A stretch of DNA of 64,000 nucleotides from Pontederia crassipes (Eukaryota; Streptophyta; Magnoliopsida; Commelinales; Pontederiaceae). The position numbers and the translations under genes were made by a program. Each line of letters opens with the position of its first letter. Position 1 is the stretch's first letter. The notes beneath the pieces were generated by a model. The model made no database searches, was not told the origin of the DNA, and saw nothing but the letters and a program-made list of their open reading frames with translations. The stretch spans positions 2,294,001-2,358,000 of the forward strand of contig CM060187.1 of assembly GCA_030549335.1 (NCBI GenBank). The letters run 5' to 3'. Positions 2,805-63,303 of this stretch are shown piece by piece.

Positions 2805-5642
2805 TGTCACGGATGTGCTCCACAAATATCATTTCAACATAATCTTACTTTTAATGAGCATTTTAAGTAAGTTTATATGCTTATATAGTCATGGTTGCAT
2901 GTAGCAATTAACCCTTGGATTAAAGCATAATCAAAATTAAATTATCGATAAGTGTTATAAAGAAATTATATAAGATTATTAAGAATAAATTATAATAATT
3001 GTAAATATTATAATAAACATGTTTAATTATGATTAAATAATGTTAATTAGAAGTTTAACACTAATTTTTAACCAAATAATATGATTGGACCTCCATTTCA
3101 ACCAATAGGGTTTCAAGCAGCTGAAGCAGGCAGCTCACTATCTGCTTAGAAAATGATTTTTCCAAACCGACATATGACGTTTTAAAATTCTGGAAAATAT
3201 ATACAAATCATTTATTCATATTATCTGCAAGCTTAAAAATTTCCAAGACCAGATCACTTTCCGAACAGTCTGAGGAAATTCGACAAGTTCGCTGGGTTAG
3301 GGTGAATCTGCGGGTCCGAAACTGACCTACAACTTCATAAGATCATATCTTCGTGAGTAGTTCTTTATAAATCCTGAAAAGTTACATGATTCATCCTCCA
3401 GATGTTAGCTTTCCATGACCACAAGAATCATACAAAAATAACTTCTTTAGAGGAAGTTATGAACCGAGAACCATAGGTCGATCACTCAGTCCCGAGTCAG
3501 AGACAGGTCCGCCTTGTAGATTAGGGTATGATTAGGGTAAATATAATTAGGGTTTGAAATTTATACATGTTAGATTATACTTCACAAGGGTTCGGTGAGA
3601 AGTGAAAGCATCAAATTTGGATGTGTAGAGGCGGAGAAATTATTTTTTCATTTCATAGTGAGTCTTCTGTCAGATTTCAGGACATTGACAGATTGCGACC
3701 CGAATTAACTATTTTTGTTATAAGTCAGTATAGCGAGTTAAATTCTTTAATTTTTATGAAAAATACTAATGAAGTCTAGTTTTCAGAAATATTATGCCCT
3801 AGTTAAATGGACAAGTATGAAGAAATATATAAATCAACATTTCAGTGACACACAGTCTGCCAGAGCACAAATCCTAGGTCAGATTGCTTGGGATGTCCTA
3901 ACTTACTCACTTGGAATTTGATAATGATATTTGGGGATTGAAAACCTTAGTATGTCTAGTTTCTAATTAATCCAGAATCATAAGATTTGCCCATGTGGTT
4001 AAGAAGTTATGAATCATTGATTGATAGACACTCAGTCTGAAACCCTGAAACAACACCTAGTTAAGCTTTGGAGAATTAAAAAGTTCTAAGTGTGGAATAG
4101 CTTATGAATATAAATGTCTAAAATTAGAAATTGGTATTAGAGGAGGTTATATGTATTTTAGGGTGCATAAGTATTCATAAATCATGAGCATGCATTACAT
4201 ATTACCTTACTAGTGATTGAGAAGTAAGAATACATTATTGTTTATAGGAAAACTTCAAGTTGCAAGTGAAAGGGAGGAAATCTAATAAACCTCCTTGAAG
4301 TGATAAAGTACAAGGTGAGTGGGTAAATTTACAACATAGCAAAATATTATATGTTAGTTCTTTTATTTATGATATTATTTCAAGCAAAGATTATTAGTAT
4401 TATTATTATTGAAACATATCTTGAACTATGAAAAGTATTTATGATATGTTTCAATGATTTTATATGAGATGGAACAATCTTTTACATGAAAATATTTTCA
4501 GGGAACAATGCTTGTGAAGTTAAAATAAGTTTTATTTGATAATGATATGAGATTATGACATGTGTATTTTGATATTGTTAAACTCTGTGTGTTCATTAGC
4601 CATGCTGTTTGAAAAAGGTCTTTGGGACCGCATTCGATATACATGAAGCCTTTGGGGCGTATATCGGGTGTCTTTGCCCTTTGGAGGCTGCTCTGCGTGC
4701 ACGTATTGACCCATGATCGCTCTGTGTATCTGATAATCATGATTGGGTGGCACACAATCATGATTGTGATACGTATTGACCCATGATTTGCTCTGTGTAT
4801 CTGAGACTTTTGATTGTGAAGCTCTGCTTAACTGTATGATACACAATCTATAGGAATACGTATTGACCCATGATTTGTTCTGCGTATCCATGACTCTTAA
4901 TTATGAAGCTCTGCTTAACTGTATGACACATGATTATAAAGAGATACGTATTGACCCATGATGAGTATGTGCAATGACACATGTGTGGAATTTAACTATG
5001 AATATGATGATATCTTGAATAATTTGTATTTATATAAAAGTTCATATGATTTGAAAAGTTATGTGAAATAAGTTATGCTTTAAATATTTTCTCATACGAA
5101 AGAAATGTGGTTATTTAAATGTTATATGCACTCGTATTGTTCCTCTATGTTGTACTTTTATTTCACTCACTGAACAAATGATTGTTGCGCACAGTACCCA
5201 TCTTAAATTTTTCAGATACTCGTAAGTTCTCAAGTTGAGACGACTCAAAGCTTACTTTTGATGCATATAGAAGAGGTCGAACCGCCGGAGCACTGCTATT
5301 TTTCTTTCGCATTTGTTTTTGAAAGCATGCATGTAATAGATAAACTCGAAAGTTGTACTAGAGTTTATTAGAATCATTTTGTAAGGTTGTATGAGATTTG
5401 ATCCTGTGGGGCTATATGTGAAATGGTTTGTGGAAAAAAAATATAATGACCATATGTGAATGTCATATCTTATTGTTTTTATTAAACTTTGATGAATATA
5501 TATCCATCTTTTGTATGTGTTGACTAATGACACAAGAAAGTAAGGGATGGAGGTTTTGCCGATTTTATTTTTGGAATGGCTAAACGTAACTAAGATTTAT
5601 GATAATTGGGATTAGCACTTAGTCACAGAGTTGGGTGTGACA
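2805..5642 (+). mobile_element. Solo LTR, probably Ty3/gypsy type, with 5-bp target duplication
   Basis: The element begins TGTCAC and ends GTGACA, a perfect 6-bp inverted terminus, and is flanked on both sides by ACAGA (2800-2804 and 5643-5647). No internal gag or pol lies between, so it is a solo LTR of 2838 bp. The last bases (GTTGGGTGTGACA) resemble the ends of plant chromovirus LTRs of the Tekay/Del type; that assignment is from memory. A second, truncated copy of its first 1.1 kb lies at 11742-12845. A small minisatellite sits at 4690-4975. The perfect target duplication suggests a moderate age at most. Confidence 0.75.
4690..4975 (+). repeat. Minisatellite inside the solo LTR (four units)
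   Basis: The word ACGTATTGACCCATGAT recurs at 4701, 4771, 4857 and 4945, spaced 70, 86 and 88 bases apart. The last spacers share CTGCTTAACTGTATGA. It lies within the LTR and looks like a local tandem expansion. Confidence 0.8.
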
Positions 5643-27532: not shown

Positions 27533-30500
27533 ATGCAGTCGGATCACACCGTGCTGAGCTTGAGGCCTGGAGGAGGCGGCGGCGGCAACCGGAGCAAACT
27601 CTTCGCCCCTCGCTTCGACTCCTCCGGTTCCTCCGACCTCCCAGCCCTCCGCCCCCATGGTGGCGCCGGCGCCAACGTCTCGCTCAAGGTCGATCTAAGA
27701 TTTTGTTCGCTCGATCTGAACGTTTCGGATTTGCTTCCCGAATTTGTTGTTCCATTTTTGGATGTTCTTGATGCGGCATCGAATCTTGTTTTGTTTTGTT
27801 TTGCTCTTTGGTTGGATTTGTTGGTTCGTTTGCATATGATCTGAGTTTTCTGATGCGTGCTGAAACGAGATTTCTGAGGGGAAAAAATTGAGTTTTGACG
27901 GAATACCATGAATTGTTGTTATGTTATCCTTCGAGGAGCTGTTGTTACCAATACTTTTATGAAATTACCTCTCTAATTTGTCTGGCCGATGGAATAAAAT
28001 ATCTCCCAATCTGTTCTTTGCGAGTTTTTTTTTTGTTTCCAAAAGTAGAAAAATATCTGATATGCTAAATTCTGTTTCATTTGTTTCAATTATTTTGGGC
28101 TGGGCATTTTTTATCTTTAGTAACGTTCAATTCTTCATTGTGCCGAGCTTTTGTCACAAGCTAATGCAGCAAATTAGTATTTAATTCACTGGAGCTGATC
28201 GAATTGTATATCTACCCTTCTTCTTCTACCACAAAAAAAAGTATCTACCCCGTCCGTTTCCTTCTTCCATTACGCCTTTTATATTGCTCAGAACTGTTTT
28301 GTTGTATTGATGGACGTGCCGAGTATAATCATGAATGAATGTTTTGTCAGGCTGGAGAGTCGAGGTTTGAGAGTCGGGAACGCATACGCTACACAAGGGA
28401 TCAACTTTTCGAACTTCGTGAGGTATGTTGCAACTGTAGCTGTCGATTCTCACATATGTGCTCTTTTTTTTTCTCTTTTCTCGAAATTTCTAGGTCTCCT
28501 GTCCTTTGTGGTTATTCAATTAATTTTCTTCTCCTTTCCTTTCCTCTCCATATGATTCTCTTCTTCTTACATTGATCAATTATTACTTGGCCGTTGGTTT
28601 ATCTAACAAAGACATGCAAACTTTCTTCATATCTGGTGCCAACGGTTTAAATCCTTCAAATGGTTTGACATTCTGTGTCAAGCTCACTTCTTTCTAGTCT
28701 TGGCTCAGCGCTTTTCTGCATAAAATATGAGAATTTGGTAAATAAACCATATCTTCATGTCAGTTGCTTCTTACTATGTGGTCGTCAACTTTGTTTGGAC
28801 TTTTTTCCCTGGAAGCTGTGCTCCATAGTATTTCAATTTGGATACGTCTACAATATAAAAATTTGTTCTATGTTGAAGTACGTATTTATTATCACTTTTA
28901 TTGTGATAAATATAATGAAAATGAAAAGTCCCAGCCAGCTTACTTTAAGTCTAACTCTGCACACAAGGTGACATTCTTTGCTGAACTCATTCCATCCTTG
29001 ATCTACTGCGAATTAAGATTATCTTTCTTGTTGCAGCTTCTTCCTTCAATCTCCATATATTTTCTAATTTTGATTATACTTCTTAATCATTTAATTTCAT
29101 GCAGACAATAATATTTCCCCATTTATTCTGTATGACGTCTTTTGTTATCACTTAAACCAACATTGATGTCATTCATCTTACTAGATGGTTGTAGCTGGAT
29201 TCTGCATGACCTACTATATGGTTGTAACTTTGCTAAAACTGCAATTTATATCCTTGCTAAATTTCCATCTTTACCTTTTTTTTTCCATGTCAGGTTGTAG
29301 TGGCTACAGAAGAAATATTGAAGCTCAAACAGGAGATTGATACTGAATTAGCTATTGAAGATCAGTCTTGGGGTCACGGCGACTCAAATGTATCACTCAT
29401 CTTTGCATATGGAATTCCATACATCTTAGATGAAATCCTGATTGGATGATTGAACACATGTTATGAAGTTTAAAATATATGCTCCATCATTAATTTTGAT
29501 TCATATGTAATTTAAAATATATGCTCCATCATTACCTTGTGATCTTAGTTGAAAATGTTTTCATTATTGCTTGAATATCTACAAAAAAAAAGTCTGAACT
29601 TTCTACTAAGATTTGTTTCATTGTTCTAGGCGCCAAGTCAATCACAGACTTTCCAGGGCCGCTATTATGAGCCAGACACTCGTGATTGGCGTGGTCGATC
29701 AGCACAGTTGCCCTCAGTTGGAGAGGAGAGATCGTGGGACACAATTCGTGAGAATAAGGAATCACAGTTGCGACAACAAGATGCAAACCAGTCAAATAGG
29801 CAGGATCAACTCAGTTCACAGCACTCAAAAGTTTCTCCTGGCCAGGTGCTGATATACATGTACTTGGAATTTTTTTGAGGAAGTACACATATTTGGAATG
29901 TTGTTCAGTTTATCTAGTTATATTTCATGTTTGATCTCAGCTTCAGCTTTGTCCTGATTTTGTTCTCTTTCTTAACCACTTTCAGTCATTCCAACATCCA
30001 ATGCTATTTTCTCCTGTGTTTATGTCTGTTGTGTTTACTGTTGGTTCCTTTCATCATCACATCTATCTCTTTTGAGGAAAAATGATGATTAACCACGCTG
30101 TTAATCACATCAATTATTTTGCTTTTTAGGGATATTCATTTTCATCCTATATCTATGTAGGTCTTGATATTTCAATGCTCAATTCATGTGGATGGGTTGA
30201 TCAGATTAGGTAGCCGACCCCACCTAGTGGGATAAGGCTTTGTTGTTGTTGTTTGAGGGGATTGATCAGATTTTTTCTTTTCATGATTCACCATGTTTTG
30301 AAAGTTAACTAGTGTACTCCTTTTTATATTCACATTCCAGATGTCTTTAACAATCTGGTCTTGATGCCTGATTCCTAGAGACTCCTATCTTGCCTAGTCA
30401 GGCCCATTACAACAACAACAACAACAACAAAGCCTTATCCCACTAGGTGGGGTCGGCTACATGGATCATACGACGCCATTCCGATTCGTCCGATTCGTTG

Positions 30501-33160
30501 ATCCATGTTCATAAGATTCGACATGATTTTATGTTGGCTGTCGGGGCCTAACACAACCCTCCTCCTTTATCCGGGCTTGGGACCGGCTATAAAATATAGG
30601 CGGAGTTATTTTATTATAACGTGTGCTTGGTTCAAGAAACGTCATCACCACCTGTTTCATTATTGTTATGCTTGTGTTCAGTCCCTCTAACATGCTTTTA
30701 TGTGGAATCTTCTTCCAATAGTGTGCCTTGACAATGTTATGTCGGTTAATATGGATTATCAGGTGGGACCTACACCTACTCTGGTTAAAGCTGAAGTGCC
30801 ATGGTCCGCTCGAAGAGGCAATCTTACAGATAAAGAAAGAGTTTTAAAAACAGTGAAAGGGTAAATTATATTTATTCCTGTATTTAACCTTCTGGAAATC
30901 TAGATCTTATGAAGATATGCTTCTGTATTTGACACATCTGTGACAAAGTTACGCTTCATGTATCATTATCTCCGCTTGAAATTCTGTAACATATTTTTGC
31001 TTGTTACGTGCAACATATTTTTGCTATCTTTCCTTCTGTGTACGTTGTTTTTATAACCACTTCCACTAAAAATAAGGCATATGGAACCATAATAATTTAT
31101 CATTGAAAATTAAATCATTATAATTGCTTTTAAATTTTGTTGGATGAGATTTCATTTTCTTGGTATGCCTCTATGTAGGATATTGAATAAATTGACACCA
31201 GAAAAGTTTGACGTCCTGAAGGGCCAACTCATCGATGCTGGGATAACAACAGCAGATATTCTAAAGGTTTCTTGGTTGACTAAGTTCAACACACATTTTG
31301 CACAAGGATATCCTATTATAATTTGCTTATCAGTATTTCATTTGGGATTTGCAGGATGTTATTACCCTCATATTTGAGAAAGCTGTTTTTGAGCCAACAT
31401 TTTGTCCGATGTATGCTCAATTGTGTTCTGATCTCAACGAGAAACTTCCTTCTTTTCCCTCGGAAGAGGAAAATGGAAAAGAGATCACCTTTAAACGTGT
31501 TCTCTTGAATAATTGCCAGGAGGCATTTGAAGGTGCTGATAATTTGAGGGCTGAGATAAGAAAGTTGACTGGGCCTGACCAAGAAATGGAGCGTAGGGAT
31601 AAAGAGAGAATGGTGAAGCTCCGCACTCTTGGTAACATTCGTCTCATTGGTGAGCTTTTGAAACAAAAGATGGTGCCAGAGAAAATAGTACATCATATTG
31701 CTCAGGTATATTTTATGTTGGTCACAAGTGTTTGGCTCATAATGAACCATTTGAAAGTGACATAACACATTATTGCAAACAGGAGTTATTGGGGCATGAT
31801 GCCAAAACTTGTCCTGCTGAGGAAAATGTTGAGGCAATCTGCCAGTTATTCAATACTATTGGTAAGCAATTGGATGATAGCCCCAAGTCTCGTCGATTTA
31901 ATGATGTCTACTTTAACCGGCTAAAAGATCTGACGAACAATCCTCAACTTGCTGCACGTCTGAGATTTATGGTTCGTAATGTTCTCGACTTACGAGCCAA
32001 TAACTGGGTACCTCGTCGTGAAGAGGTAAGTTTTCCTGTTCTCGAGCAAGAAAATTTTCAAGTCATGATTCCTAATTTTTTAAGATTCTAGAAGGGGATT
32101 AAATATAGGTTTTTGTATTTGACTGGTTTGGCAGGTGAAAGCCAAGACTATATCTGAAATCCACTCTGAGGCTGAAAAGAATCTCGGACTGCGCCCTGGA
32201 GCAACTGCAAACATGAGAAATAACCGTAATGTTAGTGCTTTAGGAGGTCTTAGCCCTGGTGGATTGCCCATTAACCGACCTGGAACTGGTGGAATGATGC
32301 CAGGGATGCCTGGAACAAGAAAAATGCCTGGCATGCCTGGGTTAGATGGAGATAATTGGGAAGTTGCACGAAGCAAATCTATGCCCAGAGTTGACCCTAC
32401 TAAGGTCCAGACCCCATTGATGTCCAAGCCTTTGCCTGCCAGTTTCAAGTTATTACCCCAAGGTAGTAGTGGTCTGATAACTGGCAAGTCCAGTGCTTTG
32501 CTGCAGGGTAATGGTTTGCCAGCGCGTTCGTCGGGTCTTGTTTCTAGTCCAGCTGACTCTTCGCCACAAAATGTTGTGCCATTAAAAACGGCTGTTCAAG
32601 TGCCACCATCTGCGGTATCAGCGAATGTGGTCGCTGCACCCAAGTTCAATCCTAATGAGTTACACAAGAAAACAGTTGCTCTTCTTGAAGAGTATTTCCA
32701 CATCCATATTCTAGATGAAGCACTTCAATGCGTGGAGGAATTGAAATGCCCTGAATACCATCCAGAAGTTGTTAAGGAAGGTATTAGTATAGCTCTAGAC
32801 AAGGGCCCTTCCTCTGTACAATCTATTATTAGGTTATTGGAGCATCTCTTTGCCAAGAAGGTTTTCAGTCAAAGAGACTTGGGGACCGGTTGTTTGCTTT
32901 TCGGGGCAATGTTGGATGACATTGGCATTGACTTACCAAAAGCGCCCGTATATTTCGGTGAAGTCGTGGGTAAGTTGGTTCTTTCAGGTGGTGTTGATTT
33001 CAAGGTCCTGGAGGAAATTCTCAAGAAAGTTGAAGATGATAGATTCCGTGTAGCATTGTTTGATGCTGTGATCAAATCTGTTAAAGCAAGCCCAAATGGT
33101 GAGGCAATATTGTCTGGACAGTCTGCTGATATTGCTACCTGTAAGAACTTAGCATCTTGA
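27533..33160 (+). CDS. EIF(ISO)4G: Eukaryotic initiation factor eIF(iso)4G (plant-specific scaffold)
   Basis: This is the scaffold of the plant cap-binding complex eIF(iso)4F, which joins eIF(iso)4E at the cap to eIF4A and eIF3 in the cytoplasm. Exons by splice sites and frame: 27533-27688, 28351-28422, 29294-29389, 29630-29845, 30763-30860, 31179-31266, 31355-31705, 31783-32025, 32135-33160; all introns are GT-AG and phases agree. The product is 781 residues, close to rice eIF(iso)4G. It starts [15 protein letters not shown], as in family members, which fixes the start. The eIF(iso)4E-binding motif YTRDQLF is at residues 66-72. A MIF4G domain spans about 205-440 ([19 protein letters not shown] inside), a linker rich in PGMPG follows, and an MA3 domain spans about 612-735. 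The gene looks whole. Two SINE/LINE-tail insertions sit in intron 4. Confidence 0.96.
30210..30253 (+). mobile_element. SINE-like element, 3' tail only (copy 1)
   Basis: It has the shared tail TAGCCGACCCCACCTAGTGG, GATAAGGCTTTG and then GTTGTTG. Only the last 40 or so bases of the element are present. It lies in intron 4 of the eIF(iso)4G gene, in the same orientation as the gene. Confidence 0.85.
30409..30608 (-). mobile_element. SINE-like element (copy 2)
   Basis: A full-length copy on the minus strand, from the AACTCCGCCTAT 5' end (30608) to the (TTG)n tail. It is a little longer than the others because of a small internal duplication of CCGATTCGT. No clear target duplication was seen. 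It lies in intron 4 of the eIF(iso)4G gene. Confidence 0.85.
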
Positions 33161-34049
33161 TGTACCTTTGTTGCCACAGTCCAAGGTTGCTTTTTGCTTT
33201 CCGCTATTTTAGCCCTCCATATGCCAAGCTGTTGCTGCCTTCTGCAGTCATTTCCATCTCTTTTCTTCTGTCCTCTTTTTTAAAGAACTGTGAGGCGAGC
33301 AATATCCATTTCTGGGAGGAACATATAAGTTACAAGAGTTGTATATTTCTGCGATGAAGGTTTATTGTTTATTCAATGATGAACAAGAAAATGCCATGGA
33401 TTTTGGCTGATAGCCACGGCTAATTTTGTGTAATGTCAAGAACATGATATGATAAATGGCCATTTTATATGTATGTGGAACTATGGCGTGGAGAATTTCG
33501 AGTTAAAAAGATGTTTGAAATATCTGTTGCTCTATCCATATTCATGAGTATGTTTTTTTTTATTATATTCATGACTCTGCGTTTTGTATTAATGAATTCA
33601 TGCATTATTTAATAACTCCCAGAATCGGTTGGTATTAATATTTTGCATTGTTTTTTTTTTCGTGTGGTACTTTATACCAAGATAAATAAGAAAACGAAAG
33701 GGCATGATTTTTTTCCTGCTAGATTCATGTATTAGAAAATAAGATGAAGTGGCGTTTAATTTAAATTCTAGGGTTTTCAATGATTCAAGCGAAAGAGAAA
33801 AAAAATACAATAACTCAATCTTTATATATTACTATCCGGGAACTTGGAAGGCTAAATATGAGAAAAGTTATTGACTGATTTAGGTTGAGATAACACGAGA
33901 ATTTGATCTTGAGATTTTTCTATTTTCGCATTAAATTTAAGAACTAACTCAGTTTCTAATCAGGATTAATTATTTGTTTTTTATTTTTCACATTAATGTG
34001 AGGCAATTTTGCCTTCAAATTGAAGGCGTCGACGGTTTGGAGCCCAAGT
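33161..34049. other. 3' UTR of the eIF(iso)4G gene and intergenic DNA
   Basis: The first 250-350 bases are the likely 3' UTR (T-rich; transcript end not fixed). The rest, to the TATA box of the next gene, shows no coding potential. Confidence 0.5.
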
Positions 34050-34058
34050 ATAAAAGGA
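34050..34058 (+). promoter_or_regulatory. TATA box of the MPS1-like gene
   Basis: TATAAAAGG lies 104 bases before the chosen start codon at 34154, a textbook plant TATA position. It supports that start over a reading frame that opens further upstream at 33974. Confidence 0.7.
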
Positions 34059-34153
34059 TCGCCTCGTCTCCCTCGCTTTCTGCTCAAAACACCACCAGTT
34101 TGAATTTGCCTCTTGCGCTTTTGTTCTCGTCTCCTTCTTCTTGGTCGCCCTTG

Positions 34154-37100
34154 ATGGCTCCTCCCGTTTCCAGCTCTCGATGCGACTCGCCTTCGTTCAA
34201 GATCGCTCTTGCCCTCGCTCTGCTCCGGTTCAACAAGCTCCATCGCCCCCCTGCTTCATCGCCGACGTCGGAATCCGACGCCCAGCGCTGGAAGAGGAAG
34301 GTGACACGGTTTTTTTTTTTTTTTTGGATCGTCTCTCTCTCTCTCTGTCCTGCCGATCGGATCGATTCTAGTTCCTAACCCCTGATCTCATCGCCGACAA
34401 CGGCTGTAGGCCAAGGACCGGAAGCGGGAGATCCTTCGGCTGAGAGAAGAGCTCAAACAAATCGAGGGCATGCTCTGGGCCTCTTCTTGCGCCAATCCAC
34501 TCCAATGGATTTTTCTTTGAACCATTTTTTTCTTTATAAATTTTCATATTGCAGATGGGAGTTCATGCGATGTGGATCCGTTAGTGGCTACTTGCCGCTG
34601 CTATTTCTTCGATGGCATAGGTGAATTAGGAGTAGACACACAAGGAAACGGTGAGCACTGGATTGATGACGTCCTGAGGCGGAGGTTTTTGAGACTGGGT
34701 GAGCCATATGATTCGACTGGTGGGATTTAAAGGTTCCTTTTTAGTCGTATTTGTGGATGTTGTCATTGTTTTCTTTTGTTAGTTCGGTGGAAAGAGGGAA
34801 AGAAAAAGGTGGATCATTCTATCCAAAGGAAGCACTTCTTAGGTGGGTAGGATTCGACTAATGTAAGCTGTTGGTGTTATGCTCATATGATTCTAATGAA
34901 ATGCTGATGATTGGATTATATATGTAGAATGTGATATTATGTTAATGAAAGTTCGCTTGTTGTTTCTTTCTTTTGCATTAAATTGCAGTATCATTTTGCG
35001 TCATCTGCAAAATTTTGACAAAAATCTTTATTCTGCCCACAATGATTCTTATAATCCTCTTCCTCTCTCATATTAGGGGAGGGAATCAAAATCAAACAAC
35101 AAAGCCTTATCCCACTAAGTGGGATCGGCTACATGGATCATACGACGCTAATTCGTTGATCCATGTTCATAAGATTCGACAGGATTTTACGCTGGCTGTC
35201 GGGGCCTAACACAACCCTCCTCCTTTATCCGGGCTTGGGACCGGCTATAAAACATAGGCGGAGTTATTAGGGGAGGGAAGCATAATTAAATTTTTATTAA
35301 TGAACATGGATCATACGACGCTCGAATCTCATGAACATGGATCAACGAAGCGTCGTATGATCCATGTAGCCGACCCCACCTAGTGGGATAAGGCTTTGTT
35401 GTTGTTGTTGTTGTTGTGAAAATAATTTGGCATTTATTATATAAAATCCTATCCAGTCATAATGCATTCATATTTCTCGTAGAATCTTCTCTATATAATG
35501 GCTTGATACAGGGTGTATTCAACTGAAATTTCTTCCTTCATTTTTTCATCTCGCACATGGATTTACTTCATGTCTATATGTTTTCTTTTACAATGATTTT
35601 TTTTTGTTTCTTACATAAGTTATGATGCACAATATAGGACAATTTTTTCACATGATATTGGACTTGGAGGTTTCGAAAGAATTTCTTTAGCAAATGAAAG
35701 CATATCAACAATACTACAGTTTTGCTTCCGACCACTCCATGTGATAGTGTCATTGCTAAGCAGGAAAATGTATTTGAAGGTGGACTTTCACTTATCAGCA
35801 TTGTCTACCTAATCAACACCCAATTATCTAGCAAGTCACAAACTTCCCTTGTGATAACATTTTAGTCAACAATGTTCTTGATGTGTCTTAGGTTTCTGTT
35901 CTTGCCTTCCAATGTTGGCATCGTGGATTAGTTTAATATTGGTTAGTAGACACACTGCATACCCTTTGTTTGGTTGGGTACCAAATGTGGAATACGTCCG
36001 CATCGGCGACAAAAAATATTTTATGTTGCTACACTTGAGCTTTTTTGTACGTACATTGAAACTCAAAGCTTCATTACAATAGGAAATCATTCTAAAATTT
36101 TGTTAATGAATTATTCCTTTATAAAGCAAGAAATCTCTCGAATCATTCTCACTGAATTTTCACACTGATTATTTAGGCTTCTTCATTCATATTTTTTATC
36201 CCAAATTTGGAGGACATGATTTATAGCCGGTCCCAAGCCCGGATAAAGGAGGAGGGTTGTGTTAGGCCCCGACAACCAGCGTAAAACCCTGTCGAATCTC
36301 ATGAACATGGATCAGGCGTCGTATGATCCATGTAGCCGACCCCACCTAGTGGGATAAGGCTTTGTTGTTGTTGTATTATTGTCTGCTTTAAATTTGCAGA
36401 ACTACATGCTGTTCAGATTTTGAATAAATTCTTAGTTAATTTTTTAACATTGACAATTATTTTAATGCTGTGGACTTGCATGTTAGAGATGCGTGCATTT
36501 CCATGAAAAATATTTATGACACATGCTGGTCTTCTCTTTTGTGCACTTGATGATGTCAGAGTTTAACAAAGAAGATGAGATGCAGCGGCTTGGTACATCA
36601 ATTGATTTCTTGGTAACGCTCGCAGACAGTCAAGTAGTAAAAGTAATTACATCGTTTGAAAAGCTCAAATTAAAGTTACGAATTAATTTATTGTATCTTC
36701 TGGTGCTTTTATTTTGGATTTCCTAAGTTGACTTGTGATATCGTCAGGGGGAAGTTGCTCCCTCCTTTGCTACACTTTCTCATCAAGCTGTTGATTACAT
36801 TTCAGGTAAGGCATAGTAAAATCAGTGATGCACAATTATTTTTATATTGCAAATGTCATTTATTTAATATTCAAAGTCAACATCACAATGTTTATATTTG
36901 CTACACAATTTCATAGTCCATATTTATATGTTTTTTAGAGTGAGTCCATATTTATCTGTTATTTACATATCCGTATGTAATAGATCAGATATGCAGTTGA
37001 TGCAAAGTTTCTGTGTTGTTGCTGACTTTTTTTCTTCTCATCGATCATCACTCTCAACTAGATGATAAGTAGTTTTTCCGATTTCTGTTATGAAGCTACA

Positions 37101-40100
37101 TTGAAGAATTTAATATCGCTGCGAAAGGATGTTGAGGTTGTTGAAGAAATTACTAACAATATGATCACCCATCTTGTAAGAAGAATGTGCAGCACTCCTG
37201 AAGCTAATGGTAAATTTCTTCTGTAGCAAAACTTTTGTCCTTTTTTGACATTGCTGTACTATGCTTCTATGAGTTCCCATCTTGTCTTATATATTGGTCA
37301 AGTATTCCTCTTAACCATGATATATATATATCCCTGATTGATAATTTCTAATTCAAGAATATAGTGAATACAAAAATTATTCTTAGTTAAGAAATTTCTA
37401 AGCATTTGCTTACTGATATATGTTGAGACATGTTAGTCTTTTCATTTTTTGAAGATCATATTCATGTACAGGTATCATGTTCAAAGAAAAATGATCAACA
37501 ACAACAACAACAACAAATCCTTATCCCACTAGGTGGGGTCGGCTACATGGATCATACGACGCTTCGTTGATCCATGTTCATGAGATTCGACAGGGTTTTA
37601 CGCTGGCTGTCGGGGCCTAACACAACCCTCCTCCTTTATCCGGGCTTGGGACCGGCTATAAAACATAGGCGGAGTTTCAAAGAAAAATGATCATTGTTGT
37701 AAAAGAGGTCGTGGAACATTATCGGTAGTAAATGCTTGTCGGCGTGTATGATTTGATTTCCATTTATTTGCTTTTTCATTGTAATTGAGGTTGTTGAAAT
37801 TAAAAGTATAACTATAAAATCTTTCTAAAAGCTAAACCTTTTGCGATAGATGATTACTTTATCAATTTGAGTATTTATATATTATCTGAGCTGGTTGAGA
37901 GGTTTTGAGTTTTGACCTTGACAAAGTTATTATAGAAAATAATTTCCCCCCTAAATAACTCATGTGATGGACCAGTCCCAAAGTGTTGTTGACCCACACC
38001 TGAAGAAGAACGTTAAGAATATAAGAATGATCACCATGCTAACAGCCTAATCTTCTTGTGATAAATGATCAGTTCACAACTTGAGAGTATATCAGAAATC
38101 TTCATTAGTATAACTTAAGTTTCAATAAGTCCAGTCTAATTCTTGTACTTTCATATTCTTCCACATTATCATATTGTAATCTCCATAGTAATAGTTCATG
38201 TTAGTTTGACGAAATTTCATTTTGAAATTTAATGTAGGATATTTTCACTACTTGTATATTTTGTTATGGGTTTATTACTTTGGAGTCAACAATAGAATAA
38301 GAAAAATATATCTTTGTGATTTATTGTGAAAGATACACTTTAAATTTCTAGGCCATCTCATTATACCATAAAATTTTATACAGTAAATTGCATATTGTGG
38401 GTCTATGTTGACTTGGTTCTCTCTCACACTAATATCTTACTCTCTTCTATGTGGAATATCCCCTTGTCTTGATAAATTTGTTTTACAGTGTCAGGATCAA
38501 CACATTCTCATTCAGATGTACAATTTTGTATTCAACATTTGATCCGCGAACTCGGAAATGTGCCTTTTGTTGGTCAAAGATCTCTTCTTTTAGTCTCACA
38601 AAAGATTTCAGGAGTTGCTGAAAACTTACTCTTCATCGATCCATTTGATGAGTCATTCCCTTGCACTCATGGAAGCATGTTTTTGATGTATGCTTCGGAT
38701 CAATCTTTGTTTGTGTTTGTTATTTTGGTACTTTTTAGGATTTTAGTTGATGACTGAAGATTTGTGGCCTTTGCATATCTTGGGAGATAACTAGTATTTT
38801 TAGCTCATTCCATTTTATCTTGTAGCTTCTTTTGCTATGTGGTGATATCCAATGTTGGTGGAATGATGCTGCTCTCGAACTAGTAGAGTGACATAGATTA
38901 ACTAGCATTATGGGCTTTCAACCTAACCTGTAGGCTACACTATTTAGTTAGGGACATTTCTGCTCTTTAGTTTGTTCAGTTTCCTTTTGTTTAATTTGTT
39001 TTTTGTTTGAAACACAGTGTCTTTAGAACTCTCAGTAAACCCTGTACTTGATGAATGAATTATGATTATTTTTTGCAAGAGGAAATTCTTCGTTAGGGAT
39101 TAGTTTGGATAGTATATATTTATCATAGTCTAGTCATTCTTGATAGCACTAAAAGATGGTCCACATTTAGAAGTAGCAATACAAAGTAGAATTGTTTAAG
39201 TCCATGGATCGGTCAAATTCTACAGTATTTGGCATAGAATTGATGACTGGCTTTCCATATGAAGCACTATTTCGTTGAAGCTCTTATTGTTTGCTTGCCC
39301 TTGATGAGAGCTGGATTAAACAAACGCATCTCCCTTTTCCTCTTCCACCTACAATGGTCTGCACACTCAATTTTTTTTTCCTGGCGAGGCAGGATTCAAC
39401 TTGTGGAGTTCTTGATAGCAGATTATGTGAGAAAGTGGATGGTTGCGGAAGATTTTGAAACAAGTAATTTTCATGCATAAGACCTCAGATTATCTGTCCT
39501 ATCAATGGTCCAAATACTATTTCCATTGATACTCAGTTTTTTTGTTTTCACATCACTGTACTATAAAACCTTAGCTATAGGTATTTAATATATTCTATCA
39601 GTTTGTAGTTACATACCTTTTGTTTATGTCATAAAATTGATGTCTTCCTGTTTACATAAAGTTTGAGGAACATGTCTGCCCGGTCAAATCTGCTATCCTG
39701 CCTGTTCCGTTGATCTATTGACAGATTGTGGCTGTATACGGCCCCCTCTGAGTAGTAATTGCTGACTTATTCTATGTTTCTTAGAATTTTAGAAGATTCC
39801 TTCTTAGAAAGTTCTCAGCCCACACACTCATCTTGTTAATAGTGACTGCACATAATAATAAAAATAATAGTGGCTGCACTCGTCTATAGTAAGATTTATC
39901 GGTTAAAAACTTAGTGGGAAATCATACTTGAGGCCAAAGTTGAAGTCTCTTCTCTTGTTTCCTATAAACATAGCACTTGAGAATAGCGTCCAGGCGAAGT
40001 GCTTGGGCTAGAATGTCATTTTACATTTCAGATTTTAAAGTTTCTCCACAGAATGTTTTGAGCTTCCATTGTGCATGTGCTTTGATTGCAGAGCTATTTG

Positions 40101-43812: not shown

Positions 43813-44544
43813 TAGGGCTGAACAAACCCAAGACCGGGTCCGGGTCTCAAGGACCCGGTCCCGACCCGAATTATACTGGATCAAAATTTTTTTGATCCGG
43901 TACCGGACCCGAACCCGGCCGGATCCGGTTTCGGGTCAGACACGGCAATCCAAGAAAATCACCGGGTTTGTGATCGGGAATAGATCGGTTCATCGTGCCC
44001 GGCGGCGAATCTGCCACCAACGGTCGATCCGGCTGACAGGCGACTGGATCCGGCCGCCGGATCGGCCTCCAGCGGTCAGCGGACGATCCGGCCGCCGGAT
44101 CGGCCTCCAGCGGTTAGCGGACGATCCGGCAGGCGCTGGATCTGACAGCTGGCAGCCGATCCGAACGCCAGGCAGCCGGAGGAGAGAGAGAGGAGTTAGG
44201 AGAGGGGGAGGGCTGCCGGAGGAGTCAGAGTTGCCGCCGCCGCCGTGAGAGAGAGGGAGAGGGTGTCGAGCGAGGCCGAGGCGTGAGACGATGAGAGAGA
44301 TGGGAGAGAGAGAAAGTCGGGTGTGAAATGAATGAAAAAAATGGCCGGCGAGTTTATATAGTGAATATAAATCGGGTCGGGTCCGAGTCAGGTATTTGCA
44401 CTCCAGACCCAGTCTTGACTCGAAATCCGCCGGATTTTTGACCCATTGGACTCGGTCCCGGACTGAGTCTTGTTCGGGCTGAGTTTTTTACCCGATTTTT
44501 CGGGTCGGTGCGGTCCGGGTCGATCCGGACCGTGCTCAGCCCTA
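43813..44544. mobile_element. hAT-type non-autonomous element with GC-rich core
   Basis: The inverted ends TAGGGCTGAACA and TGCTCAGCCCTA are flanked by a perfect 8-bp target duplication AACTAGAA (43805-43812 and 44545-44552). The 732-bp body has GGGTCGGGTCCGG-type subterminal repeats and a GC-rich centre with a 38-bp unit repeated twice (44051-44088, 44089-44126). Frames in the centre do not encode a transposase. Confidence 0.85.
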
Positions 44545-49985: not shown

Positions 49986-51382
49986 CACTACAAGAAAAAT
50001 TTACATTTTCGACAGCCCGAGCCTTCGCAAATTGTGAAAAATCCGTCGAAAAATAAAATTTACAACAGATTTTTCGACGGAAGTACCCATAGCCGAAGCT
50101 GTGAAAAATTTGTCACGGCTTGACCCGTGAGAAGTTTCCATGGCTCGGCCCATGGAAAGTTCCCAAGGGTCAGAGCCGTGGGAAAGTTTGCCACGGCTCG
50201 GCCCGTGGGACGTTCCCACGTCTCAACCCGTGAGAAGTTTCCATGGCTAGAACCGTGGCAAAACTTTCATTCGGCTCCAGTCGTGAAAACTTTTCCACGG
50301 TTGCAGGTTGCAGTCGTGGCAAAAGTTTCCAACGACTCAAGCTATGAAAATTTTCGACGGGTATATGCTTTTCCGATGATTTCAACCATCGAAAAGATTT
50401 TTTCAAATATTAAAAAAATGCACACTCGCGAGCGGCCGATCGGTCGCAGGCAGCTGAAATGGTCGCGGTAGCCGAAACGGTCTCTGGTAGCCGGATCTGG
50501 CCGCTCGCAGCCGATCGATGCTCGACAACGGATAACTAGATCTGGCCGCCCATAGTATGATTAGCCGTCAAGAGGCCAAATCCGACTATCCACAGCCTGG
50601 TTCATCTTCAAGCGGCCATATCAAGCTTCCTGGAGGTCGATCCGATTGCGGGCGGCCACATCAGGTCTCCTGGCGACCGAATCAGAGTGAGGGAGACAGG
50701 GCGATCAAAGTCGAGAGGGAGGTCGGGGCAGCCATTGTGGGGAGGCCAATATGACCGCGGGTGGCTAGATCGGGCCGCCTGATGTTGTCGCGAGCAGCCG
50801 ATCTGGCCGCAGGTGGCCACATCAAGCCGCCTAGCGGACGATCCTGCGGCAAGCGGCCACATCAAGCCGCCTAGCGGACGATCCTGCGGCAAGCGGCCAC
50901 ATCAAGCCGCCTAGCGGACGATCAGGCGGCAAGCGGCCACATCAAGCTATTGGCGGCCGGATCAAAGTGAGGGAGATAGGTCGATCGGAGTCGGGAGAGA
51001 GGGAAGTCGGGGCAGCCATGGCCGGAGCACAGGCTCACCGGAGCCGAGTGAGAGAGAGTGGGAGAAAGGGAGAGAGTGACAGGAAACAGAAAAGAGGGGG
51101 TGAAAAAAAAAGTAAGAGAGGGAGAGAAATAAATAGAGGGCGCAGGAAAAGTGAAGAGGGAGAGATGTGGGAATTTCAAGTTTGTGATGGTTTAGGCCGT
51201 GGAAAAGTTTGCCCCTCGGCCCGTGGGAAGTTCTCACGGCTAGAACTATGACAAACTTTCCCACGGCTCAGCCCGAGGGAAGTTCTCAAAATTATGAAGA
51301 ATTTGTATCCGTCACAAAATTCATCGAAAATTGTGAAGAATTTAATTTGTATCCGTCGAAAATTGACGATTTTCTAGTAGTG
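49986..51382. mobile_element. CACTA (En/Spm) non-autonomous element, both ends present
   Basis: It starts CACTACAAGAAAAAT and ends TTTTCTAGTAGTG, so the 13-base termini match with one difference. A 3-bp target duplication CAA flanks it (49983-49985 and 51383-51385). Subterminal regions are packed with words such as CCGTGGGAAGTT/CCACGGCTCGG. The centre (50430-51170) is GC-rich, with a 40-bp unit repeated three times (50821-50940) and then a GA-rich run. Frames here encode no transposase, so the element would need one from elsewhere. Confidence 0.88.
50821..50940. repeat. 40-bp tandem repeat (three copies) in the CACTA core
   Basis: The units begin ATCAAGCCGCCTAGCGGACG at 50821, 50861 and 50901 and are nearly identical. 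Partial units flank both sides. Confidence 0.92.
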
Positions 51383-59397: not shown

Positions 59398-62388
59398 ATG
59401 GCTGAAGCAGAGTTGATTGCTTTAAGAGAGTCCTTCCTCAATCAGTCTGTTCTGCTGAAGAGACTTCGTGCGGAGCTCGAGGAAGAAAGAACAGCCGCCG
59501 CATCGGGCGTAGAGGAAGCCTTGTCCATGATCATGCGGCTTCAGGAAGAGAAGGCTGCACAGAATTTGGAAGCATGCCAGTACAAGAGGATGGCTGAAGA
59601 AAAGTTGCAGCATGCCGAGGAATCCATGGCCTTCCTCAATGAGGTCATATTTCAGAAAGGGCTGGAGAACGCGTCCCTCAAGTTTCAAGTACACAATTAC
59701 AAGCAGAAGCTATTGACTCTTGGCATCAAGGACTGTGATTTCGAGACGAAAAGGTCGAATGCTTTCCCATGGTTGAAGAAAGGAAGTAGTAGTGCCTTTC
59801 CTAAGAAACCAAGCTTGAACAGGAACGTATCTCTGCCTGCAATTAGATTGGAAGAGATACTATCTGAGATTGATGCTACTGACAAATTTGGTTCGTTGCT
59901 TCCTGATAGACAAGCAAGTTCATCAGAAAATTCTGAATGTCCAAAGCAGATTCTGGATGACTGCAATACAAACAAAATTCACATGGAAGGTGGTGGTATG
60001 ATGGAAGAGTATGACACAAACAAAGTGCACAACTTCTTGAGGGAATTCAAGGAGGAATCACTATATGCAAACAAAACCTTACAAAGGTTGTTGACTCCTA
60101 AAAGATACAAGGAAAATGATCGCACAACATACGAAGATAATTCGAGAACTGAAACAGTGGAGCATGATTGCTCATGGAACCCGAGTGGAGATTATTCTGA
60201 CAATTCGACGTTTCTTCTAAAGATAAATGAGGAATATCCAAGGAAAAGATCTGCATTCACATCTTTAAGGAGACACGTTGCACGGACCAGATCATATGGA
60301 AATGGACTTAATCCATTTGGCATTCAGAAGATTTCTGAAATCGAAGATAGTCAAAATGGTGCTGGCTTTGGTGAAAAGTATGATGAAATGCTGGAAGATC
60401 CTATTTCTAAAACTAAGAGAATCAATACAGATCCTAGCTCATTACAGAAAACATCTATTTCTGCTAGTTATAAGAACAAATCAACCAAACAGCATGAAGA
60501 TGGTTTTCTGACTGAAGGTAGTAGCAGATGTGTTCCATGTCCAACTGATATTGAGGAATTACAAGAGAGGATGCAGCGTCTCGAAGATTCTGTGAGAAGT
60601 CTTAAGAAGGAAGATCAAGGAAGTGGCAGAGATCAATTTGAGTTGTTAAAGAGAGTAGTTGAGCTGTTTGACTCAATAGGAACTCTTTTTGAAATGGAAA
60701 TGCCAAAATTTGGCTGTCATCAAGATAATGACTGCTCATTGCCTCTTGTAGAGGTATGCTTTGACTTATTTATCATGGTCCTGCCATTTCATTTGTTCTA
60801 ACATAAAGAGTTATCTGCCAAGGAGATTTATCCAATATCATCAGTCATAAGGAATCATGTGAAAAGAACTCATAACTCATTTATCATACAATTAAGGTTC
60901 CCTAAATTTTTTATAATGCAAAGTTCATATTATATACACAGAAGACTAGGAGATTACCATAGGAGCAATTAATGAAGATGGTATTGATTCTAAATAATTC
61001 TCATAAGTTCTGTAAGGATCATCCTTCAAAGTTTTATATGAGCTATAACTATGGATTTCATGGTATAAGATTTTGTTCTTACCTTGATTCTGCATGGAAT
61101 AGGAATCCCAGTTGTTTGTAACATTGAACTTTTATGTCAGTGTCCCATTATTGCTTGTAACATAGAAGTATCGAAGTAGGAGAAGAGACTTACATATGGC
61201 TTTCATTGATTTAGAGAAGACGTATGATCGGGTACCAAGGGATGTACTTTGGAAAGTCTTGCAAAAAAAGAGGGTGAGTGTTGCCTACATTAAGGTAATA
61301 CAAGATATGTACGATGGGGCATTGACTAGGGTTAGGACACCCGGAGGTGAGACAAATGAATTTCCTATAGGAATTGGCCTACATCAAGGATCAGCTTTAA
61401 GCCCGTATCTATTTAACTTAGTTATCGATGCTATAATCGAGAATATCACAGAGGAGGTACCTAAGTGCATGCTATTTGCGGATGATATAGTACTTTTAGC
61501 GGATTCAAGAGAAGAGATTAATACAAAATTGGAAATATGGAGAAATACGTTGGAGTCAAAGGGTTTTCGTTTAAGTAGGAATAAAATAGAATATATGCAT
61601 AGCAATTTCACAAATAAACAACTTAGAGACGATTTGAAAGTTAGGCTAGGGGAGGATATAATTCCTCAAGTGACAAAGTTTAAATATTTAGGATCAATTG
61701 TAAGACAAAATGGTGAGATTGATGACGATGTTAATCATAGAATTCAAGCTGGTTGGTGTAAGTGGAGGAAAGCCACTGGAGTTCTTTGTGATAGAAAAAT
61801 ACCCAATAAAGTTAAAGGAAAATTCTATCATACTGTTATAAGGCCAGCAGTGTTATATGGTAGTGAATGTTGGGCTATGAAGGGACAACATGAACGTAAA
61901 GTGGGGGTAGCCGAAATGAGGATGTTGAGATGGATGTGTGGTCATACAAGATTAGATAAGATTAGGAATGATCATATACGTGAACGAGTCGGAGTGGCTC
62001 CTATTAGTGAGAAAATGGTAGAGAATCGTTTGAGATGGTTTGGTCATGTTCAGAGAAGATCATTAGATGCGTCAGTAAGAAGAGTAGATCAAATAATCTG
62101 GAGTCTGATTAAAAGAGGGAGAGGGAGGCCAAGGCGGACACTTGGCGAACTAATAGAGCAAGATCTATTGGTGAATAATATACCGAAATGTTTGGTTACT
62201 AATAGAGCGGAATGGCGTCGTATGATCCATGTAGCCGACCCCACCTAGTGGGATAAGGTTTTGTTGTTGTTGTTGTTGTCTCATTATTGCTTGCTTTGCG
62301 CTTTTTCTCTTTTGCTGAAATAATATTCTCAATCTAACACAGCTTTTGTTTCAACTTTGAACAGGCAATGCAATGTTTCTGGCTTTGA
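59398..62388 (+). CDS. GTD-binding (DUF593/zein-binding) coiled-coil protein
   Basis: Members of this plant family bind myosin XI or act as vesicle-surface receptors (the group includes maize FLOURY1 and MyoB proteins). Exons 59398-60753 and 62365-62388 give 459 residues. The junction PLVE|AMQCFWL is a phase-0 GT-AG intron and the last exon has only seven codons plus stop. The GTD-binding domain is the coiled coil at about residues 8-108 (RLRAELEEERTAAASGVEEA, then QYKRMAEEK). A second short coil lies near 383-405. No membrane segment is visible, unlike FLOURY1, so it suits the soluble subgroup. The middle is serine- and charge-rich. The start codon directly follows a splice acceptor, so the 5' UTR is spliced. 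The last intron holds an RTE LINE. Confidence 0.85.
61146..62293 (+). mobile_element. RTE-type LINE, 5'-truncated, with 12-bp target duplication
   Basis: A continuous frame (from 61158 through the methionine at 61196 to the stop at 62246-62248) encodes most of a reverse transcriptase. It has FIDLEKTYDRVPR, GLHQGSALSPYLFNL and the catalytic FADD (residues 94-97 counting from 61196), then an RTE/BovB-like C-terminus (NRLRWFGHVQRR, GRGRPRRT). The endonuclease and earlier regions are missing, the usual 5' truncation. The flanks repeat CATTATTGCTTG (61146-61157 and 62282-62293). The open frame and near-perfect duplication suggest a young insertion. It sits in the last intron of the DUF593 gene, in the same orientation. 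The 3' end, including its last ten codons, matches the SINE-like copies. Confidence 0.92.
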
Positions 62389-63108
62389 TATATTGCACCT
62401 TTCACATTTGAGGTTTCATACAACTTCTGATTACAACAGAAACTTGGTCCGCATTGTTGTTTGCAGGAGTGGTGCTTCTATGGCTTGGAGATTCTCCAAA
62501 ATAATTATTCTTTGCCATTGTTGAATAATTCGTACAAGCATATATGTACTTACAGAAGTTTTTTTGAGAAGTGATACAGGCTATATGGACATAATTGATG
62601 AACTGTGTTTATGAATAAATTCTTGTACTTGCCACCTGCAGGCTGGAGATACCATCCAACATCAAAAGAGAACTATTATTGATTTTTTTATTTCCATTTC
62701 TCTCTCTTTTTTTTCTCTTTGGGCTTATTCCTTGGCAGTCAATTGCCACAATATCATTTTTGGATTTTCTTTCTTTAAAGTTTAGAAATATGGTAGTGTA
62801 AAAAAGAGGTAAATATTTTTTTGCAAATGTGAAAATGTTAAGGGCTTCATATTGCCTTCAAGCATTTTTCTAGTGTTGAACACTGTATTAAAAAAAATTA
62901 TATTAAAATTAAATCACTTCTAACATTAATGCTTTTGATATTTCGATTTGTTTATCTCTTTCTACCTAATATGGTTGGTACGAGGATACTAACATAATTA
63001 AAACTTCGAGGGTGAACACAAATATATTCTGTACTTAAATTGATAACTTTAAATATCAAATCCACTGCTAACTTTTTACACCTTTCAATTAGGAATTCAA
63101 TGGGAAAA
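62389..63108 (+). other. 3' UTR of the DUF593 gene and intergenic DNA
   Basis: The likely 3' UTR runs from 62389, with an AATAAA signal at 62614-62619. Beyond about 62700 the DNA is AT-rich with no gene. Confidence 0.55.
62614..62619 (+). terminator. Polyadenylation signal (DUF593 gene)
   Basis: AATAAA about 226 bases after the stop codon, followed by T-rich DNA. Confidence 0.5.
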
Positions 63109-63303
63109 TTTTGGTTCCATATACAACAACAACAAAGCTTTATCCCACTAGGTGGGGTCGGCTATATGGATCATACGACGTCATTCGTTAATCCATGTTC
63201 ATGAGATTCGACAGGGTTTTACGCCGGGGTCTAACACAACCCTCCTCTTTTATTCAGGCTTGGGACCGACTATAAACATAGGCGGAGTTTTTGGTTCCAT
63301 ATA
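63109..63303 (-). mobile_element. SINE-like element with 15-bp target duplication (copy 7)
   Basis: A complete 165-bp copy (63124-63288, minus strand) between perfect repeats TTTTGGTTCCATATA at 63109-63123 and 63289-63303. It carries a few small deletions relative to copies 3 and 6. Confidence 0.92.

What the first reader, a model, noticed from the sequence alone, without database searches (positions are those of the whole stretch)
61146..63303. A LINE and a SINE-like family share the same 3' end, including the LINE's own final codons
Seen directly: the LINE ends GGCGTCGTATGATCCATGTA, then GCCGACCCCACCTAGTGGGA, then TAAGG and a TTG repeat. Copy 5 at 36.3 kb has the same roughly 45 bases, and copies 2, 3, 4, 6 and 7 match with small changes. 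In the LINE this stretch encodes [10 protein letters not shown] and the stop, so the SINE-like element has taken over coding sequence as its recognition tail. RTE LINEs are known to mobilise SINEs that share their 3' end (for example BovB with Bov-tA), and plant Au SINEs end in TTG repeats. The link to Au is recalled, not tested.
Basis: partly seen in the sequence, partly recalled or inferred. Interest (0 to 1): 0.75.

Follow-up and report, generated by a model that had tools for sequence, protein, structure and literature searches.

The report
Ribozyme-headed short element with LINE tail
A short jumping-gene family in what looks like plant DNA ends in the same letters as a larger jumping gene nearby, and begins with a predicted self-cutting RNA (twister ribozyme) whose cut site falls where the copies start, so it looks like a stripped-down passenger of the larger element.

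Summary
A 5'-truncated LINE (61158-62278) and seven short copies share 3' ends of 44-72 nt (93.8-98.6% identity), running from LINE codons through the TAG stop to a TTG tail. All 7 runs of four or more TTG in the window (LINE plus six short copies) follow this tail.

The short family has no detectable tRNA/Pol III head. Its 5' end matches the Rfam twister-P1 self-cleaving ribozyme (69.1, 65.9, 60.1, 52.2, 28.6 bits; gathering 67.2). In the three full-length copies with exact 15-18 nt target duplications, the element starts, within one base, at the predicted twister cut site. Twister lacking stem P1 still cleaves at almost wild-type rate (PMC5408937), so a copy could free its 5' end at any insertion site.

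Best reading: a non-autonomous RTE-type element, twister head plus LINE tail. Plant SINE/LINE tail sharing is known (tobacco TS; PMC3747384); twister at RTE 5' ends is stated in one sentence (PMC7761336). I found no plant short element combining both, in open-access searches with capped lists. Not shown: ribozyme activity, or that this LINE begins with twister; both LINE copies seen are 5'-truncated.

The parts
61158..62278 (+). 5'-truncated LINE (RTE type): reverse transcriptase C-terminal part, open frame to TAG, (TTG)6 tail
   Evidence: RVT_1 E 1.5e-24; flanking duplication TGTCYCATTATTGCTTG, 16 of 17
62229..62256 (+). core shared tail ATGTAGCCGACCCCACCTAGTGGGATAA with hairpin CCCAC-CTA-GTGGG holding the stop codon (62246-62248)
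   Evidence: 27 of 28 identical in the LINE of L001; only such window of 1090; hairpin present in six of six folds, five short copies and the LINE
   Evidence: twister-P1 52.2 bits
37496..37676 (-). short element copy, full length, exact duplication of up to 18 nt
   Evidence: twister-P1 60.1 bits
   Evidence: twister-P1 28.6 bits
35095..35265 (-). short element copy, full length, exact 15-nt target duplication that starts 9 nt beyond a tail of about two TTG units
   Evidence: twister-P1 65.9 bits
35304..35417 (+). short element copy, 5'-truncated, begins with an 18-nt inverted copy of its own tail; no duplication found
30409..30607 (-). short element copy, full length, longest junction; no target duplication found
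   Evidence: twister-P1 69.1 bits, above gathering
30210..30253 (+). tail-only insertion, duplication 13 of 14
37622..37681 (-). twister-P1 ribozyme match at the 5' end of a short copy (its first 5 nt lie in flanking DNA)
63236..63294 (-). twister-P1 ribozyme match, same place in its copy
35211..35270 (-). twister-P1 ribozyme match, same place in its copy
30553..30612 (-). twister-P1 ribozyme match, same place in its copy
36192..36260 (+). weak twister-P1 match (28.6 bits, E 0.029) over the truncated head of copy 36216

Best explanation
The short family is a non-autonomous retroelement moved by the RTE-type LINE whose tail it shares. Shown by computation: its 3' 44-72 nt are LINE sequence including codons, stop and TTG repeat; its first ~55 nt match the twister-P1 ribozyme; exact target duplications meet the element, within one base, at the predicted twister scissile bond. 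Inferred: the element is transcribed by read-through (no Pol III boxes seen; Pol II promoters not tested); the twister cuts the transcript at the element's first A and discards upstream RNA; the LINE reverse transcriptase recognises the tail hairpin plus (UUG)n, nicks a new site and copies the RNA by target-primed reverse transcription up to the ribozyme-made 5' end. Since twister does not need stem P1 (PMC5408937), each new copy could cut itself out whatever DNA flanks it. The head most likely comes from the 5' end of the LINE itself, making the element a LINE reduced to its two ends. The confidence given is for a twister-headed passenger of this LINE, whatever the origin of the head; the first two rivals below differ only on origin and overlap with it.
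For: Shared tail. Twister-P1 in five of five heads, E 7e-14 to 5e-9 for four, 0.03 for the fifth. The four full-length copies have the same first bases AACTCCGCC and different upstream DNA; three have exact duplications of 15, 18 and 15 nt, all ending with the first A of that start. Rfam places the same AA right after P1 and the U of internal loop L1, and PMC5408937 (passages) puts the scissile bond between a less conserved U next to P1 and a highly conserved A. No tRNA or A/B boxes. Duplications also flank the LINE (16 of 17) and the tail-only copy (13 of 14). PMC7761336 (passage) says truncated but active twisters are conserved at the 5' end of RTE retrotransposons, as work in preparation.
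Against: Only one of five heads passes the Rfam gathering score (67.2). Two of four full-length copies lack the U before the cut. The shared first A leaves the start uncertain by one base. Copy 30607 has no duplication, 35304 none, 36216 a weak one and no first ~10 nt. No cleavage was tested. The window LINE and the only other LINE found (L001) are 5'-truncated, so twister on this LINE is not seen. RTE clade was not tested by a tree. Seven copies from one window are few.
Confidence: 0.8

Rival explanations
1. Chimeric SINE: the twister head came from some other genomic twister and was joined to this LINE's tail; the LINE does not begin with twister. (Overlaps with the best explanation except on the origin of the head.)
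For: No LINE 5' end could be inspected here; the junction varies between copies.
Against: PMC7761336 says twister is conserved at RTE 5' ends; several animal RTE passengers carry heads listed as '5'-end of RTE' (PMC3747384 Table 1).
Confidence: 0.2
2. No master short element: each short copy is its own internally deleted LINE copy made by template jumping during reverse transcription. (Also differs from the best explanation on origin only.)
For: The junction between head and tail has five forms among six copies.
Against: Head and linker are alike in all copies up to the same place (87-99% to one query for the five with a head), and the junction differences sit in or next to the loop of one hairpin, which fits one lineage with small indels.
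Confidence: 0.12
3. Ordinary tRNA-derived SINE that took a LINE tail.
For: Tail sharing and TTG end as in tobacco TS (PMC3747384).
Against: No tRNA gene; best A+B box fit no better than shuffles, 185-227 of 300 shuffles as good, in 5 of 5 copies; the head is accounted for by twister-P1.
Confidence: 0.03
4. The twister match is a coincidence of sequence and the start of the copies has nothing to do with self-cleavage.
For: Only one of five heads passes the gathering score; activity is untested.
Against: Four E-values of 5e-9 or less (the copies are related, so these are not independent) and the agreement of the predicted cut with the duplications.
Confidence: 0.05

Closest known systems
Tobacco TS SINE with potato RTE-1_Stu (PMC3747384, passages)
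   Same: Plant short element whose 3' end (about 100 bases) is nearly identical to an RTE LINE; both end in TTG repeats
   Different: TS has a tRNA-related head with A and B boxes; this family has a twister head
Bov-A2, MAR4, RTESINE1, RTE1-N1_LA (PMC3747384 Table 1)
   Same: Short passengers with the 3' end of an RTE and a head listed as 5'-end of BovB or RTE instead of a tRNA
   Different: Mammalian; no ribozyme head is named in the table; origin of the head from the LINE is not tested here
Twister at the 5' end of RTE retrotransposons (PMC7761336, one sentence) and twister variants in Schistosoma mansoni non-LTR elements (Liu 2021, seen only in the citing text and reference list of PMC11620745; paper not held)
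   Same: Twister in non-LTR elements, at the 5' end of RTEs. From recall, unread here: Liu 2021 also finds target duplications next to the twister cut site of Perere-3
   Different: Those are autonomous LINEs; here a 167-199 nt passenger, apparently of a plant, carries it
R2 LINE with HDV-like ribozyme (start of abstract of PMC3774820 in a search listing)
   Different: Other ribozyme class; R2 inserts site-specifically in 28S genes
Retrozymes (PMC7761336 passages; PMC9695139 abstract start)
   Same: Small non-coding plant retroelements with a self-cleaving ribozyme
   Different: Hammerhead ribozymes in LTRs and circular RNA; here no hammerhead hit and a LINE tail

Membership tests
SINE/LINE pair with common tail | 3' end nearly identical to that of a LINE in the same genome | tested here: met
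   44-72 nt at 93.8-98.6% in seven of seven copies
SINE/LINE pair with common tail | Mobilised by that LINE's proteins | not testable with these tools
   Inferred from the shared tail only
tRNA-derived SINE | tRNA-related head with Pol III A and B boxes | tested here: not met
   no tRNA gene; box fit at shuffle level in 5 of 5 copies; no positive control was run
Twister ribozyme, type P1 | Match to the Rfam covariance model RF03160 | tested here: met
   four of five heads E <= 5e-9; one (69.1) above gathering 67.2, others 65.9, 60.1, 52.2, 28.6
Twister ribozyme, type P1 | Self-cleavage at the U-A step | not testable with these tools
   Only the agreement of cut site and exact duplications, in three of three copies that have them
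Non-autonomous RTE with both LINE ends (Bov-A2 type) | Head derived from the LINE's 5' end | not testable with these tools
   Both LINE copies seen are 5'-truncated; no full-length relative found
RTE clade LINE | TTG-type 3' repeat, as in all seven flowering-plant RTE families of PMC3747384 Table 3 | tested here: met
RTE clade LINE | RT phylogeny within RTE; APE endonuclease upstream | not tested
   Copy truncated; only RVT_1 found; RTE label rests on the tail and on recall of plant RTE C-termini
Au SINE | 3' end in a T tract (PMC3747384) | tested here: not met
   Six of seven short copies end in (TTG)>=4, the seventh in about two TTG; no Au sequence was compared
Retrozyme | Hammerhead ribozyme | tested here: not met
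   No hammerhead hit in 28000-64000 or 1-28100 at E <= 0.5

The most novel reading that the evidence does not exclude
Plants hold a class of short retroelements made of only two working parts, a twister ribozyme that sets the 5' end without any promoter of its own and an RTE tail that recruits the reverse transcriptase; many genomic plant twisters may be the heads of such elements and of their RTE partners. The conserved tail is at once the LINE's last codons and stop and the recognition hairpin.
Probability: 0.45. Interest if true: 0.68.

Novelty: new variant of a known kind. Interest (0 to 1): 0.55.

Why it matters
It offers a simple answer to how a short element without a tRNA or Pol III head can keep a constant 5' end wherever it lands, and a biological role for plant twister ribozymes. 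It makes the partnership testable at both ends: the cut site at one, the stop-codon hairpin at the other.

Tried and rejected
Relatives in viral contigs: DNA patterns of head or tail found nothing, the LINE protein gave one pattern match that was no relative. Genome contigs: head pattern nothing; LINE protein 11 pattern matches, 1 relative, a record that looks like a plant clone mislabelled as a bacterial plasmid, whose LINE is 5'-truncated and without a twister hit. Plasmids by protein: the same record and an RT-Cas1 gene of Azospirillum at 35%. tRNA head: rejected. Au membership: rejected on the published tail type. Exact DNA words of head and tail in the paper library: one unrelated paper. 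Passages of PMC10085705, PMC11445735 and PMC8216279 did not bear on twister plus RTE. Higher synonymous identity in the last LINE codons (5 of 6 against 77 of 186 elsewhere) is weak alone; I rely on the 28-nt window test. Copy 36216 first looked to me as if it began at a cut site between CCU and AUG; the Rfam alignment shows the cut lies before AACUCC, so that idea was dropped.

Full report
Observation. The LINE at 61158-62278 and seven short copies share their 3' ends. BLAST of the LINE against the window gives seven further matches of its end, 44-72 nt at 93.8-98.6% identity; an HMM of five copies finds the same seven plus the LINE above its threshold. The shared part runs, in the longer copies, from LINE codons (EW)[10 protein letters not shown] through TAG (62246-62248) into TGGGATAAGG and TTG repeats. 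All 7 runs of (TTG)>=4 in the window, the LINE and six short copies, follow this tail; copy 35265 has only about two TTG.

The LINE. One open frame of 360 codons from stop to stop holds the C-terminal part of RVT_1; its best matches among solved structures are R2 and LINE-1 proteins, with weaker ones to other reverse transcriptases. It is 5'-truncated and flanked by TGTCYCATTATTGCTTG, 16 of 17. A TTG end is the RTE type among flowering-plant LINEs (PMC3747384, passages); I did not build a tree.

A second LINE. The one relative found lies in NZ_CP104070.1, called an Alicyclobacillus plasmid but with a lacZ cloning-vector stretch (recognised by eye) beside the LINE-bearing DNA. Over 1117 aligned columns the two LINEs are 61% identical; of 1090 windows of 28 nt one reaches 27 identities: ATGTAGCCGACCCCAC[C/A]TAGTGGGATAA. 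The best conserved stretch thus crosses the stop codon and contains the hairpin CCCAC-NTA-GTGGG. In copy 35265 a C-to-T change turns the neighbouring C-A mismatch into a U-A pair. This fits a tail kept as an RNA recognition signal, but it is one pair of LINEs. The ~14 bases just upstream are shared by the short copies with the window LINE but not with the second one, so the short family's tail comes from a LINE close to the one in the window.

The head. Rfam search of the whole window found one match at gathering level: twister-P1 at 30553-30612, the 5' end of a short copy. With relaxed threshold five of five heads match: 69.1, 65.9, 60.1, 52.2 and 28.6 bits; in 1-28100 no twister appears. The fifth, copy 36216, lacks the first ~10 nt. 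No tRNA gene was found, and A/B boxes fit no better than in shuffles (185-227 of 300 shuffles as good, five of five copies; SINE-Finder motif in none of five; motifs recalled, no positive control).

The boundary. Four full-length copies (167-199 nt) start AACTCCGCC after four different flanks. Three have exact duplications, 15, 18 and 15 nt, each ending with the first A of that start; the fourth (30607) has none. In the Rfam alignment the same AA follows P1 and the loop U. A review puts the twister scissile bond between a less conserved uridine beside P1 and a highly conserved adenine, and reports that twister without P1 cleaves off a single nucleoside at almost wild-type rate, and that the U could be replaced by 2-aminopurine (PMC5408937, passages). 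So the element starts where twister would cut, give or take one base, and the target DNA supplies whatever lies upstream. Copy 37676 matches 35265 letter for letter inside the element part of the alignment, so its lower score (60.1 against 65.9) comes from the flank, which lacks the U; copy 63289 has changes inside as well.

Mechanism. Shown: LINE tail, twister match, agreement of cut site and duplications. Inferred: read-through transcription, self-cleavage at the first A, recognition of the tail hairpin by the RTE reverse transcriptase, target-primed reverse transcription, and new copies that can cut themselves out anywhere. Whether the head is the LINE's own 5' end could not be seen, because both LINE copies are truncated; a review says in one sentence, as work in preparation, that truncated but competent twisters are conserved at the 5' end of RTE retrotransposons (PMC7761336, passages), which makes it likely. 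Twister variants in S. mansoni non-LTR elements are cited in PMC11620745 (passages); that paper itself was not held.

Middle part. The short RNA has a second hairpin, ACATGGATCAACGA with TCGTATGATCCATGT, whose right arm is LINE tail and left arm an imperfect inverted copy of it. A 10-nt inverted repeat of this kind, looked for in copy 37676, occurred in 3 of 500 shuffles; folds of the 3' parts give z from -0.8 to -5.8 in five copies and +0.45 in the LINE. Junctions take five forms in six copies, in or next to its loop; copy 36216 also loses the inner four pairs and 63289 has changes in the arms. Copy 35304 begins with an 18-nt inverted copy of the tail, as if the cDNA had folded back. The whole 181-nt copy 37676 folds at z -2.87, none of 200 shuffles as well.

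Against known things. Tail-sharing pairs are well known (58 SINEs counted in PMC3747384, one plant case with an RTE), as are RTE passengers with '5'-end of RTE' heads. What I did not find in searches is a plant short element with twister head and RTE tail. These covered open-access papers only, and for the broad ones only the top of the list was seen (20 of 4,648, 40 of 736, 10 of 4,253), so priority is not proven. Hence: new variant of a known kind.

Noticed in passing
L002 (NZ_CP104070.1, 1-39760): Record called an Alicyclobacillus fastidiosus plasmid holds a lacZ cloning-vector stretch, an IncFIA replicon call, catA1 and DNA with a plant-type LINE: apparently a plant BAC clone that contaminated the assembly.
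   Followed up: partly
window 35304-35417 (+): Short copy starts with an 18-nt inverted copy of its own tail, like a snap-back of the cDNA; it lies close to copy 35265-35095 in the opposite orientation.
   Followed up: partly
window 30409-30607, 35095-35265, 36216-36374, 37496-37676, 63123-63289: Head-tail junction length varies among copies, in or next to the loop of a hairpin.
   Followed up: partly
window 30210-37676: Six of the seven short copies lie within 7.5 kb.
   Followed up: no
window 59398-60756 (+): Exon-like open frame with a Zein-binding domain (PF04576, E 2.5e-25), just upstream of the LINE.
   Followed up: partly
window 50799-50947 and 44047-44130: Tandem repeats of periods 40 and 38, up to 97% identical.
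   Followed up: no
window 4768-4962: 87-nt tandem repeat, about two copies, 85% matches.
   Followed up: no
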